A DNA stretch of 64,000 nucleotides from Gaertneriomyces semiglobifer (lineage: Eukaryota; Chytridiomycota; Chytridiomycetes; Spizellomycetales; Spizellomycetaceae), in the NCBI GenBank assembly GCA_025558075.1, contig JAHLKF010000020.1:124001-188000 (forward strand). Direction: 5' to 3'. Every line of letters begins with the position of its first letter. The stretch's first letter is position 1. The notes under the pieces are model-generated. The model made no database searches. It was not told the DNA's origin and saw only the letters and a program-made list of their open reading frames with translations. This document shows, one piece after another, positions 17,375 to 64,000 of the stretch. Both the position numbers and the translations under genes were made by a program.

Positions 17375-18590
17375 GTGGAAATTGATTTACACCAACCTCT
17401 GATGAGATAATATAATATAATTTTTTGTGCTTTTGCGAGAGCGGCGGTCGGTGATTGGCTTTAATAAGTTGATTTTTTCCAATATCCTGATGGATGAATA
17501 TCAGTCTGGCTCCAATTCGGATGCTGCCAAAAAGTCAGCCGTAGGAACAGTAGAGCAGGAGTGGCGTCCCGTCGTGCGACGAATGGTAGGTATAATTGCA
17601 GTTGTTGTTGTGAATGTAGTAGTAGACAATGGTGGTGGTGAACGGCGGTGGCAGTGGCAGCAGCTGCACAACAGGGGCGACGACGACGACAACGACGAGG
17701 ATGCCGACGATGCCGACGACGACGACGACGACTTCGACGGAGCTAGTCGACAGCAGAAACGGGGCTTCTCAGCCCATGAAGTAGAGACAGACGACGGTAA
17801 AACGAAACGAGAATGGGTACTAGCGGCCAGAATGGAGGACTTTTTTCACACACTACTTTTCCGTGTGTGTGTGTGTGTTGTTGTTGTTGTTGTTGTTGTG
17901 TGCTTGTTCTGTGTGTGTGTATCTAGCACTATGTGTATGTGTATGCTGCAAGTGCAAGTAAGTGTTTTCTGTTTCCCCAGCCGTTTACTTATGCAAATGT
18001 GCAGTTGTCTTATATAAGCGATGCGATTATGGATCAGTTGATTGGGGGAATTGATTGAAATGGATTGGGGAACGTGTGTATGTGTATGTGTATGTGTATG
18101 TGTGCGTGTGGATGAGTTGCTTTATGTGTTTGTTATGCGTCAGTGAGTGGTAAGGTAATATGATTATTAAGTAACTGTACATGTATAAGTAACTATTGAT
18201 ATCATAGTAGCTAGCTAGTAACTAGTAATGGTGCACGTAAGCAGCACACACTAGTTAGTAACTAGCACTAAGCAACACACATGGGGGGAAAGAAACAAAA
18301 GAGAGGCGTTCCCTTTATTATGTGTGTGACTGGCGGGTGGGCATGGAGAGACAGCCAGCCACACAACACACAGTTGATCTTGAAATTGAATGAAAATTTG
18401 GGAGAACGAGTCACATGAGTCATATGACTGCATGTGAATAAGGCACGTTGGTGTCATGTGGTTGGCGCGAGAAAGGGTTTCGTTGAAGGTTGAATTTGAA
18501 TTTGATGCCGAGCGAGCGCGAAATTTAACAGCTCACACACACACACACACACATACACATACACATACACATACATACATACCCGCAAAA
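17375..18590. other. Long divergent intergenic region rich in microsatellites
   Basis: About 1.2 kb between the phosphatase and LCCL start codons. It contains GAC/GAT triplet runs (17670-17740), a (GT)n(TTG)n tract near 17865-17910, TATGTG repeats (18073-18105), variants of AGTAACTA (about 18188-18270) and a CA/ACATAC tract (18533-18582) just before the LCCL gene. Open frames here only translate these repeats. I see no gene. Confidence 0.6.
18533..18582. repeat. (CA)n / (ACATAC)n tract in the LCCL gene leader
   Basis: A dinucleotide and hexanucleotide repeat ending 9 nt before the ATG at 18591. If an in-frame upstream ATG at 18456 were used it would encode a THTHTH run. I take it as 5' UTR. 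Confidence 0.85.
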
Positions 18591-20726
18591 ATGATGAACC
18601 ATAATACAGCAAGTGTGATCCCATCCAGAGCAAATACTAGGACTGTGCCTGTGAATGGCGACGACGATGATGATATTGCTATAGATAATGCATATGTGGC
18701 GAACGATCCTGACAATGATGATGGTGATGGTGAACGGGGGAGGTTCGGTATAGAGAGGTTAGACGATACACAACAGCAACAGCAGCACGAACAACAGGAA
18801 CAGCAGCAGGCGAGTATTGCTACAACGACAACAACAGGAAGTAATGCCGCGCTCCTAAAGCAAAGACCACCACGACAACAACAACAAAGTGATCATCACC
18901 ATCCGGCGGCTGCCATTATTCCTGTAGAGGATGACGACGACGACAACGACGAGCGTCATGCGCTGAATAATGATAGCGCTTCCAAGCCGTCCCATGCAGC
19001 TGCAACTGCTCTTCACCAGCACCATCCCCTCAAGCGTTTATTGGAGCGCTGGGAAAAGAAACTCCGGATACGTCCACAGACAATCAGGCCCATCCCCACG
19101 TTATCTCGCCCCTTGTTCCCTTCCCTCTCCGCAAAATTGGATGCCGCCATCAATATTGTCCCGTTGCACTGGCACTGGCTGCCCCTCTGGATCTACGCCC
19201 TTCTCTGGATGCTCCTCTTTGGCCTCCTCGTCCATTTCAACATTTACAAAGCCTCGACCCCACTCGGGAAACCCGAATATATAAGCTGCACCGATAATCT
19301 GTGGTCCTGGCGCATGGAAACTTGCGGTCTAGACGGCATGTACTGCCACCCCTTTCGTAACGCTTCCTACATCATTCGTTGTCCCACCGGCTGCGATCTC
19401 ACCTTTAACCAGAATCGGCGGTGGCTCGGCGACTCTCAGCGCGGCTTTATGCAGCCATGGGTCGTCGGTGGGAACCCCGCCTACAAGGCCGAAAGCTGGA
19501 TATGTCCCAGCGCCATCCATGCTGGACTCGTCTCCAAAGCCTGGGGCGGGTGTGCAAAAGTCACGCTCACCGGTGAGAGTCTCAACTACCCTGCCAGCGA
19601 GCAAAATGGCGTGACCTCCTTAGCGTACGACGCGTGGTTCCCTAAATCCTACGAGCTGAGTTACGTCGAGTCCTCCCATTGCACAGACTACTCCTGGGCC
19701 ATCACGCCCGTCGCCATCCTCCTTGTCGCCTTTTTCCCACTCGTCCATCCCACCCTCGGCACCTACGCGTTTGCCCTCCTCACCGCAGGTCACTTTTACG
19801 TCACCTTTGTCGGCATCCCTATCCATTCCGACGACTGGCTCGCCGAATCCTGGGCTCGGTACCTCGTCATGCTGGCCTTTGCCTACATCCTCTACCGCCT
19901 CTTCATCCGCGTCACCCTCCCCTCCCAACCTTCCAAATACCTCCTCGATCTCTTTCTCTTTGTCGTCATCCCCTTTTTCTTTGCCCTCCACCTCGAAGTC
20001 GTCATGGCCCCCTTTGCCGATTTCGGACTCACCTCCCGCGCCTTTCGTGAACCCCGCACCCTCATCCTCTTCATCATCGGTGTCCCCACCGTCGTCATCA
20101 TCTGCATCGCCCAACTCTACCTCCTCCGTCGCCACGGTCTCCTCGGCACCTACATCCTCGGCTACGCCCTCGCCATCCTCCTCTACTTTTCCCTCTCCGA
20201 AGCACAAAACCTCCATATCCACTTACACCACTACACACTCGGTCTCATCCTCGTTCCTCTCACACGACTACAAACGCGTCCGTCCCTCATCTTTCACGCA
20301 TTCGCTCTTGGTCTGTTCGTGCAGGGTTTATCAAGGTGGGGCCCCGCTTCTCCATTTGATACCACACTCCAAAACCTCGCGGGAGACGAAGCCGTATGGG
20401 TCCCCCGCCCTTACTTTGACATCTCACCCCTCTCACTCCGCGACACGGCCACAGTCCACTGGTCCATCGGCGACCAAAACACACTCATCGAAGGCTCATA
20501 CGACGCTTACTCCCTACTTTTGAACGACGTTGAAGTCTATCGTGGGACGGAAAATACTGTGGTCGTGAACCGATTGAAAGAGGATGCGGATCGCGGGAGA
20601 CGCTATTATTTGAGGGTCGCCCTTGTGGCGGCGGGCGCGGCGTTGGAGTATAGTTATCCGGTGGTGGTGCATGGGAATGGAACGGTGGTCTATCAGAATG
20701 GAACCGTATCGGATCCGCCGGTGTGA
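18591..20726 (+). CDS. Fungal LCCL-domain multipass membrane protein
   Basis: Single exon, 711 residues from the ATG after a CA-repeat leader. An in-frame ATG at 18456 would add 45 residues that mostly encode the CA repeat. The first 150 residues are low complexity (poly-D, poly-Q, poly-H). A first membrane segment (LPLWIYALLWMLLFGLLVHF) is followed by a luminal or extracellular LCCL domain with paired cysteines and the diagnostic CPSAIHAGLVSKAWGGCAKV. About eight more hydrophobic segments follow, then a soluble beta-rich tail with three NGT/NGTV glycosylation-like sites near the end. LCCL membrane proteins of this layout are widespread in fungi, and their function is unknown. The usual order (TM, LCCL, multi-TM, C-terminal domain) is kept. 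Confidence 0.88.
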   Translation: MMNHNTASVIPSRANTRTVPVNGDDDDDIAIDNAYVANDPDNDDGDGERGRFGIERLDDTQQQQQHEQQEQQQASIATTTTTGSNAALLKQRPPRQQQQSDHHHPAAAIIPVEDDDDDNDERHALNNDSASKPSHAAATALHQHHPLKRLLERWEKKLRIRPQTIRPIPTLSRPLFPSLSAKLDAAINIVPLHWHWLPLWIYALLWMLLFGLLVHFNIYKASTPLGKPEYISCTDNLWSWRMETCGLDGMYCHPFRNASYIIRCPTGCDLTFNQNRRWLGDSQRGFMQPWVVGGNPAYKAESWICPSAIHAGLVSKAWGGCAKVTLTGESLNYPASEQNGVTSLAYDAWFPKSYELSYVESSHCTDYSWAITPVAILLVAFFPLVHPTLGTYAFALLTAGHFYVTFVGIPIHSDDWLAESWARYLVMLAFAYILYRLFIRVTLPSQPSKYLLDLFLFVVIPFFFALHLEVVMAPFADFGLTSRAFREPRTLILFIIGVPTVVIICIAQLYLLRRHGLLGTYILGYALAILLYFSLSEAQNLHIHLHHYTLGLILVPLTRLQTRPSLIFHAFALGLFVQGLSRWGPASPFDTTLQNLAGDEAVWVPRPYFDISPLSLRDTATVHWSIGDQNTLIEGSYDAYSLLLNDVEVYRGTENTVVVNRLKEDADRGRRYYLRVALVAAGAALEYSYPVVVHGNGTVVYQNGTVSDPPV

Positions 20727-58880: not shown

Positions 58881-59169
58881 CCTTTGCACCAAACCACATC
58901 TTTTTTACCCACTGCCCTGAAAGCTATCGTTCTCCATTCTCACACGACATTTACATATATAGCAGCACAAGGTTGCAGACAGTGTGGTTGCGTGTGCGTC
59001 AACGAGCGTCATTTCATTCCTTCTTACCTGCCAAACAACTGTGCAGCTCCGTACCGTAGGATAGCGCGGCCTCATTCGATCTAACGACGCCCCCGACCTT
59101 CCGACCTTGCAATACGTTTCATATCAACGGGTTCCATCGACAGATAGACACCGTTTAGACGTGACAGCG

Positions 59170-61689
59170 ATGAGCCAGTCGCTGCCACTGCCTGAAAATT
59201 CCCTTGCAGGTTCCGTGACGCTTCAAGCAGGGAGGAATGGCCAATCTAAAGCGTTCGTATCAGAGCCTCCATTTTTGAAAGCGGATTCGGGAAAATGTCT
59301 TTCTAGTAATGCTTTCGGGCATGATTCTGGGTATGGCGAGGAGCCACAGCAAGTTTTCGCTCAAAGACGGAATAGGCTTTTAGCGTTAATCACTGGCACG
59401 AAGAGTATCATCAAGGATATGACGGGATCTGCAGGAATAATGTATCCCTCATCAGCTTTGAAGAGAGCTTTTGGACCAGGGCACATGCTTACGAGAAACC
59501 GAAGTGTTCACGAGGATATCCCCGTAGCCGCAGAACCTCCAAAGTCGCCCGCTGACGAGAATCCCTTGCAAATTTTGCAACTGGATGTCAAGTCGTATGC
59601 TTATAAAGGATCTGTGGCAGATCTCAATCCGAACGATCAGGGTTTGGTATCACAGCTGTTGCAGGGTAAATTGCAAGAGATATCCCAACATTTGGACCGG
59701 TTGAATGCGAGGATATCAGATACTCGCTCGAAAGTTCTAGTCACTGGTGACTTGAATGCTGGTAAAAGTACCTTTGTCAACGCCATACTTCGCCGAGAGG
59801 TGGTACCGGATGATCAACAACCTTGTACCGCGCTCTTCGCCGAAGTTGTAGACTCGGAGCAAAACAATGGCATTGAGGAGGTACACGGAATTAAAGATCC
59901 GGGAAAATACGATCGGTGCGACCCGACCACTTTCACACGTTTCGACTTTAGACACCTGAGGGAAGTGGTCGAAGATAATGTTGACGGATACGAACAATTG
60001 AAGATTTATTGTCGTGACAAACGGGAAAGGAAACAAAGCTTACTGCACAATGGCATCGTGGATATTAGTCTCATTGACTCTCCCGGTCTGAATATTGACT
60101 CTATCAAAACTACGGCGCTTTTTTCACAACAAGAAGAAATTGATGTTATCGTCTTTGTCGTGAATGCAGAAAACCACTTTACTCTCTCGGTGAGTGGGCC
60201 TAGTAAGGATCGCGGCTTGCTTAATTAGTAGTAACATACTATTTGGCCTTCTCAGGGACGTGACTTTCTGACCACAGCAGGCAAGGAAAAGGCGTATATC
60301 TTCATTGTCATCAACAAATTCGATCAAATCCGTCGCAAAGATCGCTGTCGCCGGGAGATTCTCGAGCAGATCCGTCAGATTTCACCGAGAACGTATGAGG
60401 AAGGGGACAACCTTGTGCATTTTGTGAGCGCGAAACAGTTGCTCAATCACAAGGAAGGTGAAGATACATCTGAAACAATGATCTCAGAGTTTCATAAGAT
60501 GGAGGACGCGTTACGGTCGTTCATCTTGGAAAAGCGTTCGCGGTCTAAGTTGGCACCCGCGAAAATCTACTTGCATAATCTCCTGACTGATATTATCACT
60601 ATTTCTCGCTACAACACCCTTGAAGCGGTGAAACGCGCTGAGAGTGTAACAGCGGAAATGCGCGAAAATGCACCAGTGTACGATCGCATGCTACAAATCA
60701 AAACGAGTGTTTTGGATTCCATTGACAGGACCATCGATGGAACCGGGCAAGAAGTACAGAAATATGCCGAGAAGATGTTGGATCATTTTGTGGAGAGAAT
60801 ATGGGAATATACGGAAGATGTTGAATTCGGCGGCGTGCTCTATATTTGGCAATATGCTCGGGATTTAAGAAACAGGGTGTACAGCGTTGCCGCGTCAAGG
60901 CTGCGACGATGCGAAGATTTTGCCAGAGATCGGGCCGTTAAATGCTTGAGAGATATTGACAGCGTCGCCAAAGACTGCATGTCCATGCCACCATCTATTG
61001 ATATGGATGTGATTAAAGGCATGTTCGAAGGGGATATGTCCACAGCGAACGCCTCCACCCGTGTTGCAACATCATCACCGCCATCAGCACAAATTGTTCC
61101 CTTACCGGTGTCCGACTTCTTCGATCATGCCGACAAGGCCGAGTTGGCTAGGGAATACGCCCCTAGTGTTGGTTTAATAGTTGGGGGACTAATAGGATAC
61201 CGCCATATGGCTGGGCAGATGTTGGGACTGGGGGGGAATGTAATCAAGGCTAATAGTGGAAGGCTGGCATTTGCAGGAATCACCATTGCAGGTAAGGCGA
61301 GCCTCGTTTGATTCTCGAGATGGCATTATTTAACGTGAGCGTGTTATGGTTTACCTGTAGGCATAGGCATTTTCTTGTATGCCCTCTCGAATCTTCCTCG
61401 GACACTTGAGCGTAAAGTCGTATCAAAAATGCGTGATCATTTCCTATCTCTTCACTTCACGTCGTCGAACGCTCAACGCCTGGCTTCGGGCACCAAGCGT
61501 GTCTTACGCTTGGCCATTTGGGATTTCCAGTCACAATTTCAAAGAATTCTAAGGGAAAATGAAGATCGGAGGGAAAAAATGGAAGGAGACGTTCGGGAGG
61601 CTGAACGGTGCAGAAACGTTTGGGGTGGAGTGGAAACGAAGGCCAGGCGCTTAAAGGAAGAGGTGGAGAGCGTACATTTGGAGACGTGA
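59170..61689 (+). CDS. FZO1: FZO1, mitofusin-type dynamin GTPase
   Basis: Three exons: 59170-60189, 60256-61291, 61361-61689, giving 794 residues. FZO1 drives outer-membrane fusion of mitochondria. GTPase motifs are the P-loop GDLNAGKST (about 194-202), a G2 Thr in QPCTALF, G3 DSPGL (about 303) and G4 NKFD (about 360). Helical bundles with heptad character flank it. Two adjacent membrane segments near residues 655-705 (YAPSVGLIVGGLIGY and AFAGITIAGIGIFLYALS) cross the outer membrane, followed by a C-terminal coiled coil (KEEVESV end). MSQS start at 59170; an in-frame TTG upstream at 59107 was not used. It is divergent from TAP42. Confidence 0.92.
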
Positions 61690-62052: not shown

Positions 62053-62415
62053 TCAAGATCCGACCGATATATTAATCGAAAGCCGATCTCCTGTTATTCC
62101 CCAATGTGTCCGCTGTGATAGGTAGACCCAAATCCACATGGTAATGATCACAACATAAACTAACGATCCAGCGAGAGACGCCAGCGTAACTGATAGCAAG
62201 GGGATCAGACTACGTCTTAACGAACGAGAGGTTGTCTCTCTACCATCGTACTTACGATTTCGAATCGTCTTACTCCACTCCATGTGGCGTCTCGTCTCCG
62301 GATAAATGTAAATGAAGTTGAAAAGCCATAGCCAGGGCAAGAACAGAAAACCACCGATGAAATATTTCCAAGCTAGAGACCTGATTTCGGTCTCCTTCAT
62401 GTTACGGAGGCTCAT
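62053..62415 (-). CDS. PSENEN: PEN-2-like gamma-secretase subunit
   Basis: Single exon, 120 residues from ATG 62415 (or 115 from ATG 62400); human PEN-2 has 101. PEN-2 is the smallest subunit of gamma-secretase, the intramembrane protease of presenilin, nicastrin and APH-1. The match runs along the whole protein. KYFIGGFLFLPWLWLFNFIY parallels the human KYYLGGFAFLPFLWLVN segment. A basic loop follows, then a second hydrophobic stretch VYVVIITMWIWVYLSQ. The C-terminus HWGITGDRLSINISVG parallels RWGALGDYLSFTIPLG, including the DYLSF-type tail needed for complex stability. A 12-15-residue insertion lies in the loop (IRNRKYDGRETTSR). It contains GTAAGTAC but removing an intron there breaks the frame. 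The gene is divergent from a PDI-like ER protein. Confidence 0.82.
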   Translation of the reverse strand: MSLRNMKETEIRSLAWKYFIGGFLFLPWLWLFNFIYIYPETRRHMEWSKTIRNRKYDGRETTSRSLRRSLIPLLSVTLASLAGSLVYVVIITMWIWVYLSQRTHWGITGDRLSINISVGS

Positions 62416-62629: not shown

Positions 62630-64000
62630 ATGAGATGGTCACTGGCGGCGACATGGGCCGCCTGGTCCGTCTTCATACTTATTGGCTCGGTGTCGGCGGG
62701 TACAGTGGAAGAATATGAGGAAGCTGACTCTAAGGCCTTATACATTCCGCCGGCCGACTTTGACAAGACCATTTCCGAGGGCCAATGGCTAGTTTTTTTC
62801 GGATCTAAAACTTGTCCTCATTGCCGGGCTTTTACGCCGACATGGGTTCAAGTGCAGCAGGAAGTTTTGCCCAATCACCCCGGTTTTTACATGGGCAAGG
62901 TGGAATGTACCGGACGAGCGGTAAATGAGGATCTTTGTGAGGCGAACAAGGTCAAATTTTACCCAACCGTAAAGCTATTTCACAATGGGAAGCTAATTGA
63001 AGAAGCGGAGGACATCAGGGATGTCGCCAAGCTGTCCAGATACGTGGAGAAAGCTTCCAGAGTTAAAGTTGACCACACCATCAAGGAACTCAACTCACTC
63101 GCGGATGCAGCCACCAAACCCCGTTCTGGCATCAATCCCGATGGCGTTCCCATTCACTTGACAGATAAGACCTTTGCTATTATGACCAACAATACCCCTT
63201 GGTTCGTTATGTTTCATGCCCCTTGGTGCAGCCACTGCCAGAAACTCAAGCCCGTGTTCCTCGATTTGGCGCCGGCAGTGAAAGGCCGCGTCAATATCGG
63301 TCTTGTTAACTGTGATATTGAAACGAAAACTTGCAAGGAATTTGGCATTCGAGGGTACCCAACTTTGAAGTTTTTGCAACTCCCTGATACCCAAATCGAC
63401 TACAAATCCGCTCGTACGCACGATCAACTTCGAGATTTTGCCTTGAGCTTTTCCTCCAAGCCTGCTTTTGCCGCTGTCAAGGCTTCTGAGCTTCCAGATA
63501 TCTTCAAAGCAAACGAGAACGTGTTCGTTTTCGTACAGGATCCGGAATCTAAGGATGAGAAGGCATTGGACGCGTTTATCCAAATTGCCAACATTGTGCG
63601 AACAGACGCACCATTTTATATAACTCCAGACCCAGAAGCCCGCAAGCTTCTGAAAGTCCCTGGAGTACAACACCACCTGATCGCTGTTAAGGATCATGGC
63701 GCGAAGTTTGTGACGTATCAGCAACCCCTAGTGGCGGATTCTGCCTTGGTACCGTATATCAGGCAATTTGTTCTTGACAACCGCTATCCACGTATCGTTC
63801 ATCTCGACTCTGGGAATCAAGAAGAAATTCTTGGTGGAGAGAAGGTCGTTGTATTGGCTGTCATCGATCCCGCCGACTCTCGGCGTTCGAGCATCATGAA
63901 GAAGTTAACGGCTCTTTCAATTGCCTGGGACAAGAAGGAGGCCGATGAGAACCTCCACAATGTGGTTACGTTTGCATGGTTGGATGGAGTGAAATGGAGA
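62630..64000 (+). CDS. PDI-family ER thioredoxin protein (partial, runs off the edge)
   Basis: ATG at 62630, open to the window end for 457 codons without an intron. Residues 1-23 form a signal peptide (WSLAATWAAWSVFILIGSVS). Two thioredoxin domains are seen. The first has WLVFFGSKTCPHCRAFTPTW with CPHC at 62-65 and KFYPTVKLF (cis-Pro loop). The second has WFVMFHAPWCSHCQKLKPVF with CSHC at 200-203 and GIRGYPTLKFLQL. Later sequence (from about 275) keeps a thioredoxin-like pattern without CxxC, as in b domains. Neither active site is the canonical CGHC, so redox potential and substrate range probably differ from PDI1. A C-terminal membrane segment or HDEL would lie beyond the window. Confidence 0.85.
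   Translation, partial: MRWSLAATWAAWSVFILIGSVSAGTVEEYEEADSKALYIPPADFDKTISEGQWLVFFGSKTCPHCRAFTPTWVQVQQEVLPNHPGFYMGKVECTGRAVNEDLCEANKVKFYPTVKLFHNGKLIEEAEDIRDVAKLSRYVEKASRVKVDHTIKELNSLADAATKPRSGINPDGVPIHLTDKTFAIMTNNTPWFVMFHAPWCSHCQKLKPVFLDLAPAVKGRVNIGLVNCDIETKTCKEFGIRGYPTLKFLQLPDTQIDYKSARTHDQLRDFALSFSSKPAFAAVKASELPDIFKANENVFVFVQDPESKDEKALDAFIQIANIVRTDAPFYITPDPEARKLLKVPGVQHHLIAVKDHGAKFVTYQQPLVADSALVPYIRQFVLDNRYPRIVHLDSGNQEEILGGEKVVVLAVIDPADSRRSSIMKKLTALSIAWDKKEADENLHNVVTFAWLDGVKWR

What the first reader, a model, noticed from the sequence alone, without database searches (positions are those of the whole stretch)
62053..62415. PEN-2 gamma-secretase subunit in a fungal genome
The protein aligns by eye along both membrane segments and the diagnostic C-terminal tail with animal PEN-2. 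Gamma-secretase is generally regarded as absent from the well-studied Dikarya, so a fungal PEN-2 implies that presenilin, nicastrin and APH-1 may also be present. That would mean regulated intramembrane proteolysis by presenilin persists in an early-diverging fungus. The longer loop (residues about 45-60) is a lineage-specific change.
Basis: partly seen in the sequence, partly recalled or inferred. Interest (0 to 1): 0.75.

Follow-up and report, generated by a model that had tools for sequence, protein, structure and literature searches.

The report
PEN-2 gene of a chytrid fungus
This is a genuine fungal gene for PEN-2, one of four parts of the gamma-secretase membrane protease; the other three genes are in the same genome, and the complex has already been reported from early-branching fungi, so the gene is ordinary, while the fungal presenilin's extra zinc finger is the less familiar part.

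Summary
In detail: the minus-strand ORF at 62053-62415 matches Pfam PEN-2 (E 1.5e-17) and is the only match found in the genome. Two details are wrong. The gene is not single-exon, and the "longer loop" is an in-frame 66-nt GT-AG intron (62255-62190). NCBI's model of this gene omits it, four other PEN-2 relatives lack it, and removing it lifts the Pfam score from 64.2 to 80.4 bits (120 to 98 aa).

The same genome encodes presenilin (WD and GLGD motifs), APH-1 and nicastrin, so a full gamma-secretase is expected.

It is not new. [quoted passage not shown] PMC10512342 cites components from an anaerobic fungus in 2013; NCBI already names this protein PEN-2.

One side finding seems undescribed in the papers I could search: the presenilin carries an N-terminal MYND zinc finger, as do 79 of 120 listed homologues, including chytrids, Mucoromycota, Catenaria and an aphelid. 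It may be an adaptor on the cytosolic face.

The parts
62256..62415 (-). PEN-2 exon 1 (start ATG at 62415; first hydrophobic segment, conserved Asn33)
   Evidence: Pfam PEN-2; start aligned with P0002 and P0123
62190..62255 (-).
   Evidence: its translation is absent from P0001, P0002, P0123, P0124, P0125; spliced; Pfam score rises on removal
62053..62189 (-). PEN-2 exon 2 (long transmembrane segment, C-terminal GDRLSINISVG tail, stop)
62630..64000 (+). divergently transcribed protein disulfide isomerase-like gene (thioredoxin domains), runs off the window; neighbour, not part of the complex; start codon chosen by eye
   Evidence: Pfam Thioredoxin 5.3e-36 on L019:3447-5417

Best explanation
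A two-exon gene encodes a normal 98-aa PEN-2 subunit of a complete gamma-secretase in a Spizellomycetales chytrid, most likely Gaertneriomyces. Shown: PEN-2 homology, the intron (by comparison, not by RNA), and presenilin, APH-1 and nicastrin genes in the same genome. Inferred from the animal complex: PEN-2 docks on presenilin transmembrane segment 4 (Asn33 to the WN motif), triggers presenilin self-cleavage, and so switches on a four-subunit protease that cuts single-pass membrane proteins within the membrane. The substrates in this fungus are unknown.
For: PEN-2: Pfam 1.4e-22 when spliced. A profile of six rows (this gene twice, as P0001 and spliced; three named chytrids; one unnamed JGI protein) finds human PEN-2 at 3e-21 over model positions 2-97 of 98. 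The predicted fold of P0001 (two short helices and one long, pLDDT 64.5) has human PEN-2 6lqg_D as the best of 6 PDB matches, TM 0.71 by target. Presenilin, 8 exons, 679 aa: PF01080 9.3e-114, WD at the first catalytic Asp, KLGLGDF at the second, PALP. Nicastrin, 7 exons, 709 aa: small lobe 6.2e-42, large lobe 8.5e-34, one C-terminal hydrophobic segment. APH-1, 6 exons, 235 aa: 2.3e-57, GxxxGxxxG and two His aligned with human (motifs recalled). The docking residues are present on both sides: Asn33 in all six rows of A4 and IWNL in presenilin. The WNF-Asn33 contact is described in PMC3625161 (passages).
Against: No expression, splicing or biochemical data were available; the presenilin, nicastrin and APH-1 exon models are mine, fitted by eye to GT-AG sites. 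The C-terminal DYLSF motif of animal PEN-2 (recalled) reads DRLSI here, and WNF reads WNL in the presenilin. P0001 starts 37 residues further upstream and is marked partial, so the start codon is not certain. The AlphaFold model of PEN-2 is of modest confidence (pTM 0.41), and the Foldseek match has E 1.2e-3, above the 1e-3 line. The genome-wide presenilin search rang weakly, below the cut-off, in 3 of 14 control genomes; the PEN-2, APH-1 and nicastrin searches rang in 0 of 14.
Confidence: 0.95

Rival explanations
1. The 22-residue loop is real coding sequence: PEN-2 in this lineage has a longer loop, or the intron is sometimes retained to make a second isoform.
For: The stretch is a multiple of three and has no stop, so an unspliced transcript would still be translated.
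Against: The NCBI model of the same gene omits it; four of four other relatives lack it, three of them named chytrids; it has GTAAGT and CAG ends and a length within the range of the introns that I modelled in the other three subunit genes (57-102 nt); removing it improves the family score.
Confidence: 0.04
2. The sequence is a contaminant (an animal or protist scaffold in a fungal assembly).
For: None found beyond the absence of PEN-2 from the well-studied Dikarya.
Against: The named relatives found are all chytrids (P0002 Spizellomyces, P0123 Powellomyces, P0124 Batrachochytrium); the fifth, P0125, is unnamed. The contig is 368,072 bases, the same length as the NCBI contig that carries P0001 from a record whose name begins Gaertnerio. 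The four subunits lie on four contigs of 0.37 to 1.96 Mb.
Confidence: 0.01
3. The complex is decayed or used only in a protease-independent way, as proposed for presenilin in a moss.
For: Protease-independent roles of presenilin are described in mammals and a bryophyte (PMC2770060 passages).
Against: Both catalytic aspartates and PALP are present, and all four subunit genes give open spliced models. Keeping PEN-2, APH-1 and nicastrin argues for a working complex (inference).
Confidence: 0.1

Closest known systems
NCBI protein of Gaertnerio[myces], 'Presenilin enhancer-2 subunit of gamma secretase-domain-containing protein, partial' (P0001)
   Different: model begins 37 residues upstream
PEN-2 of Spizellomyces palustris, Powellomyces hirtus, Batrachochytrium salamandrivorans (P0002, P0123, P0124)
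   Same: 61, 64 and 58% identical to P0001, 93-98 aa, same GDR(L/I)S tail
   Different: nothing notable
Human PEN-2 (PDB 5a63_D, 6lqg_D)
   Same: aligned almost end to end by the profile; shared GGF, LP, LWL-N, R-WG, GD-LS and final G
   Different: DYLSF (recalled) reads DRLSI
Animal gamma-secretase (human presenilin-1, nicastrin, APH-1A, PEN-2)
   Same: all four subunits, both catalytic Asp, PALP
   Different: first catalytic motif WD, not YD; the fungal presenilin has an N-terminal MYND finger with no counterpart in the human alignment

Membership tests
PEN-2 (PF10251) | profile match above the curated cut-off | tested here: met
   80.4 bits against 25 when spliced, 64.2 unspliced
PEN-2 (PF10251) | about 100 aa with two hydrophobic stretches | tested here: met
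   98 aa; hydrophobic 18-38 and 50-79; helices 45-60, 64-80, 86-127 of P0001 in a model of modest confidence
PEN-2 (PF10251) | Asn33 that contacts presenilin TM4 | tested here: met
   invariant N in all six rows; contact described in PMC3625161 (passages)
PEN-2 (PF10251) | C-terminal DYLSF motif (recalled) | tested here: inconclusive
   D, L and S kept; Y to R and F to I
gamma-secretase complex | presenilin with both catalytic Asp and PALP | tested here: met
   WD, KLGLGDF, ALPALP in the spliced model, aligned to human presenilin-1
gamma-secretase complex | APH-1 in the same genome | tested here: met
gamma-secretase complex | nicastrin in the same genome | tested here: met
   three further matches are below the cut-off
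gamma-secretase complex | assembly of the four proteins and proteolytic activity | not testable with these tools
   needs bench work

The most novel reading that the evidence does not exclude
Gamma-secretase of early-diverging fungi is a distinct variant. Its presenilin carries a cytosolic N-terminal MYND zinc finger of one common type, ancestral to fungi and aphelids and without counterpart in human presenilin-1. It could tether transcription cofactors or substrates bearing proline-rich peptides to the protease, so that cleavage and signalling are physically coupled.
Probability: 0.5. Interest if true: 0.55.

Novelty: already known. Interest (0 to 1): 0.3.

Why it matters
It confirms, with all four genes modelled in one genome, that the parts of presenilin-type proteolysis persist in a chytrid order that has genetic tools (transgenic Spizellomyces punctatus, PMC7213984; search listing and start of abstract seen only). 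That makes the function of gamma-secretase outside animals and plants testable. The MYND finger on fungal presenilins offers a concrete handle: a putative binding module fused to the catalytic subunit.

Tried and rejected
My first presenilin model (692 aa, made, used) joined the MYND part to the rest through a 37-nt intron. Alignment with P0003 and P0004 showed that this was wrong. The corrected model (679 aa) keeps exon 1 open through GRGNAAQLINTE and uses a 76-nt intron.

An apparent 'LD' in place of YD/WD at the first catalytic site came from reading through an intron in the raw frame. The spliced frame reads WD.

NCBIfam gave no match for PEN-2, as expected for a library made for bacterial and archaeal genomes. 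Rfam gave nothing at gathering thresholds in the window. The presenilin homologue search drew words only from the first 500 residues, scored only the 7,993 candidates sharing most words, and listed 120 of 133 proteins. It cannot show that MYND-presenilins are absent outside fungi.

The single-sequence search with the unspliced PEN-2 reached 2 proteins and the two-row profile 5, so the spread of PEN-2 in fungi is under-sampled here. Presenilin gives the better picture of spread. I did not search other fungal genomes for APH-1 or nicastrin.

Full report
What is in the sequence. The open frame at 62053-62415 on the minus strand is a PEN-2 gene: Pfam PF10251, E 1.5e-17, 64.2 bits against a cut-off of 25, model positions 2-93 of 93. 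Human PEN-2 in the PDB matches at 1.4e-10. It is the only PEN-2 match found in the 20.86-Mb, 66-contig genome, and 0 of 14 control genomes match. Chance is not a serious explanation.

The long loop is an intron. At that place the DNA reads AAATC-GTAAGT...TATCAG-TTACG, a 66-nt GT-AG stretch (62255-62190) that keeps the frame and has no stop. Splicing gives RNLTL, as in P0001 (RHLTL in P0002). Four other relatives (P0002, P0123, P0124, P0125) are 93-98 aa without the insert. Splicing raises the Pfam score to 80.4 bits.

Which organism. The contig that holds the window is 368,072 bases long, and so is the contig listed for P0001. Gaertneriomyces is a genus of Spizellomycetales, Chytridiomycota. 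A presenilin of Gaertneriomyces sp. JEL0708 (P0003) is 92% identical to my first presenilin model, so the window is probably another species or strain of the genus. Genus and species are inferred from the record, not shown independently.

The other three subunits. Presenilin exons on C1, APH-1 on C2 and nicastrin on C13 were found by family search and spliced by hand at GT-AG sites. Controls: the presenilin search, run at E up to 1, rang in 3 of 14 control genomes, over the cut-off in 0; the other two rang in 0 of 14. Below-cut-off matches elsewhere in this genome were 1 for presenilin (C21) and 3 for nicastrin. Presenilin: 679 aa, 8 exons, C1:151515-149001 minus; PF01080 9.3e-114. Nicastrin: 709 aa, 7 exons, C13:335042-337649 plus; Ncstrn_small 6.2e-42, Nicastrin 8.5e-34, N-terminal hydrophobic stretch and one C-terminal hydrophobic segment. 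APH-1: 235 aa, 6 exons, C2:321373-320319 minus; PF06105 2.3e-57. Alignment to human chains puts WD and GLGD on the two catalytic aspartates of presenilin-1 and keeps PALP; APH-1 keeps GLGMGLMSG and the two aligned His. Nicastrin's best PDB match is 4r12_A, ahead of human nicastrin. The residues that join PEN-2 and presenilin in the human complex, Asn33 and the WN of TM4 (PMC3625161, passages), are both present. A regex count on presenilin homologues found WN in 87 of 120, another residue before N in 12, and no match to the pattern in 21.

Structure. P0001 is predicted as two short helices and one long helix (mean pLDDT 64.5, pTM 0.41; N-terminal 38 residues below 50). The best of 6 Foldseek matches is human PEN-2 6lqg_D (TM 0.71 by target, E 1.2e-3; 0 matches at E 0.001 or better). 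Confidence is modest; the alignment has 6 rows.

What is already known. PMC2770060 (2009, passages) held that presenilin, nicastrin and APH-1 are missing from fungi, on 4 fungal genomes including a microsporidian. [quoted passage not shown] PMC10512342 (passage) cites a 2013 report of gamma-secretase components in the anaerobic fungus Orpinomyces; that report itself was not seen. A chytrid PEN-2 is therefore an expected member of a known complex.

A side finding. The presenilin model begins with a MYND zinc finger (residues 58-96, Pfam 2.9e-7), in the same open exon as sequence that P0003 and P0004 also place before TM1. Among the 120 listed homologues, 46 of 60 and 33 of 60 match zf-MYND at E up to 0.01, 79 of 120 in all. 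A separate pattern count gave 63 whole and 16 partial fingers, with 41 having neither. Some of the 41 are visibly short or N-truncated models; Piromyces finnis P0094 and similar unnamed sequences with long N-termini seem truly to lack it. Against my reading, P0003, the closest relative, is one of those without the finger; its model starts just after the finger. The finger of Spizellomyces P0004 is predicted with block pLDDT of 87-95 (whole model 62.4). In the Foldseek search of that model human presenilins come first (6iyc_B, E 1.6e-11), and two solved MYND domains (2dan, 9de2) appear at E 1.3. The finger's own sequence matches the MYND domains of CBFA2T1 and DEAF1 at about 4e-4. Human presenilin-1 aligns only from residue 199 of the query onward, so the finger has no counterpart there. 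The first catalytic dipeptide is WD in 113 of 120, other in 3, unmatched in 4; human has YD. No paper in the searched library joined presenilin with MYND in fungi (none; 12 papers, by title and start of abstract unrelated, not read). That library covers open-licence papers only. Function is inference: the presenilin N-terminus faces the cytosol in animals (recalled), and MYND domains bind short proline-rich peptides (recalled; the title of 9de2 names an ETO2 MYND with an MPPL peptide).

Verdict. The MYND-bearing presenilin is the part worth a follow-up.

Noticed in passing
L016, G000:C1:151515-149001 (minus): Presenilin with an N-terminal MYND zinc finger; 79 of 120 listed homologues match zf-MYND, and the named ones among the 120 are early-diverging fungi and an aphelid (names, grouping recalled).
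   Followed up: partly
presenilin homologues P0003-P0122: First catalytic motif is WD in 113 of 120 listed presenilins, where human presenilin-1 has YD.
   Followed up: partly
P0018, P0019, P0021: Batrachochytrium salamandrivorans and Polyrhizophydium presenilin models are fused to ARM/HEAT repeats in the annotation; may be real fusions or merged gene models.
   Followed up: no
window 59107-60228: Dynamin-family GTPase domain upstream of a long ORF (60415-61311) and a short one (61375-61689) without Pfam match; possibly one mitofusin-like gene with introns.
   Followed up: no
window 18456-20726: ORF of 756 aa with an LCCL domain.
   Followed up: no
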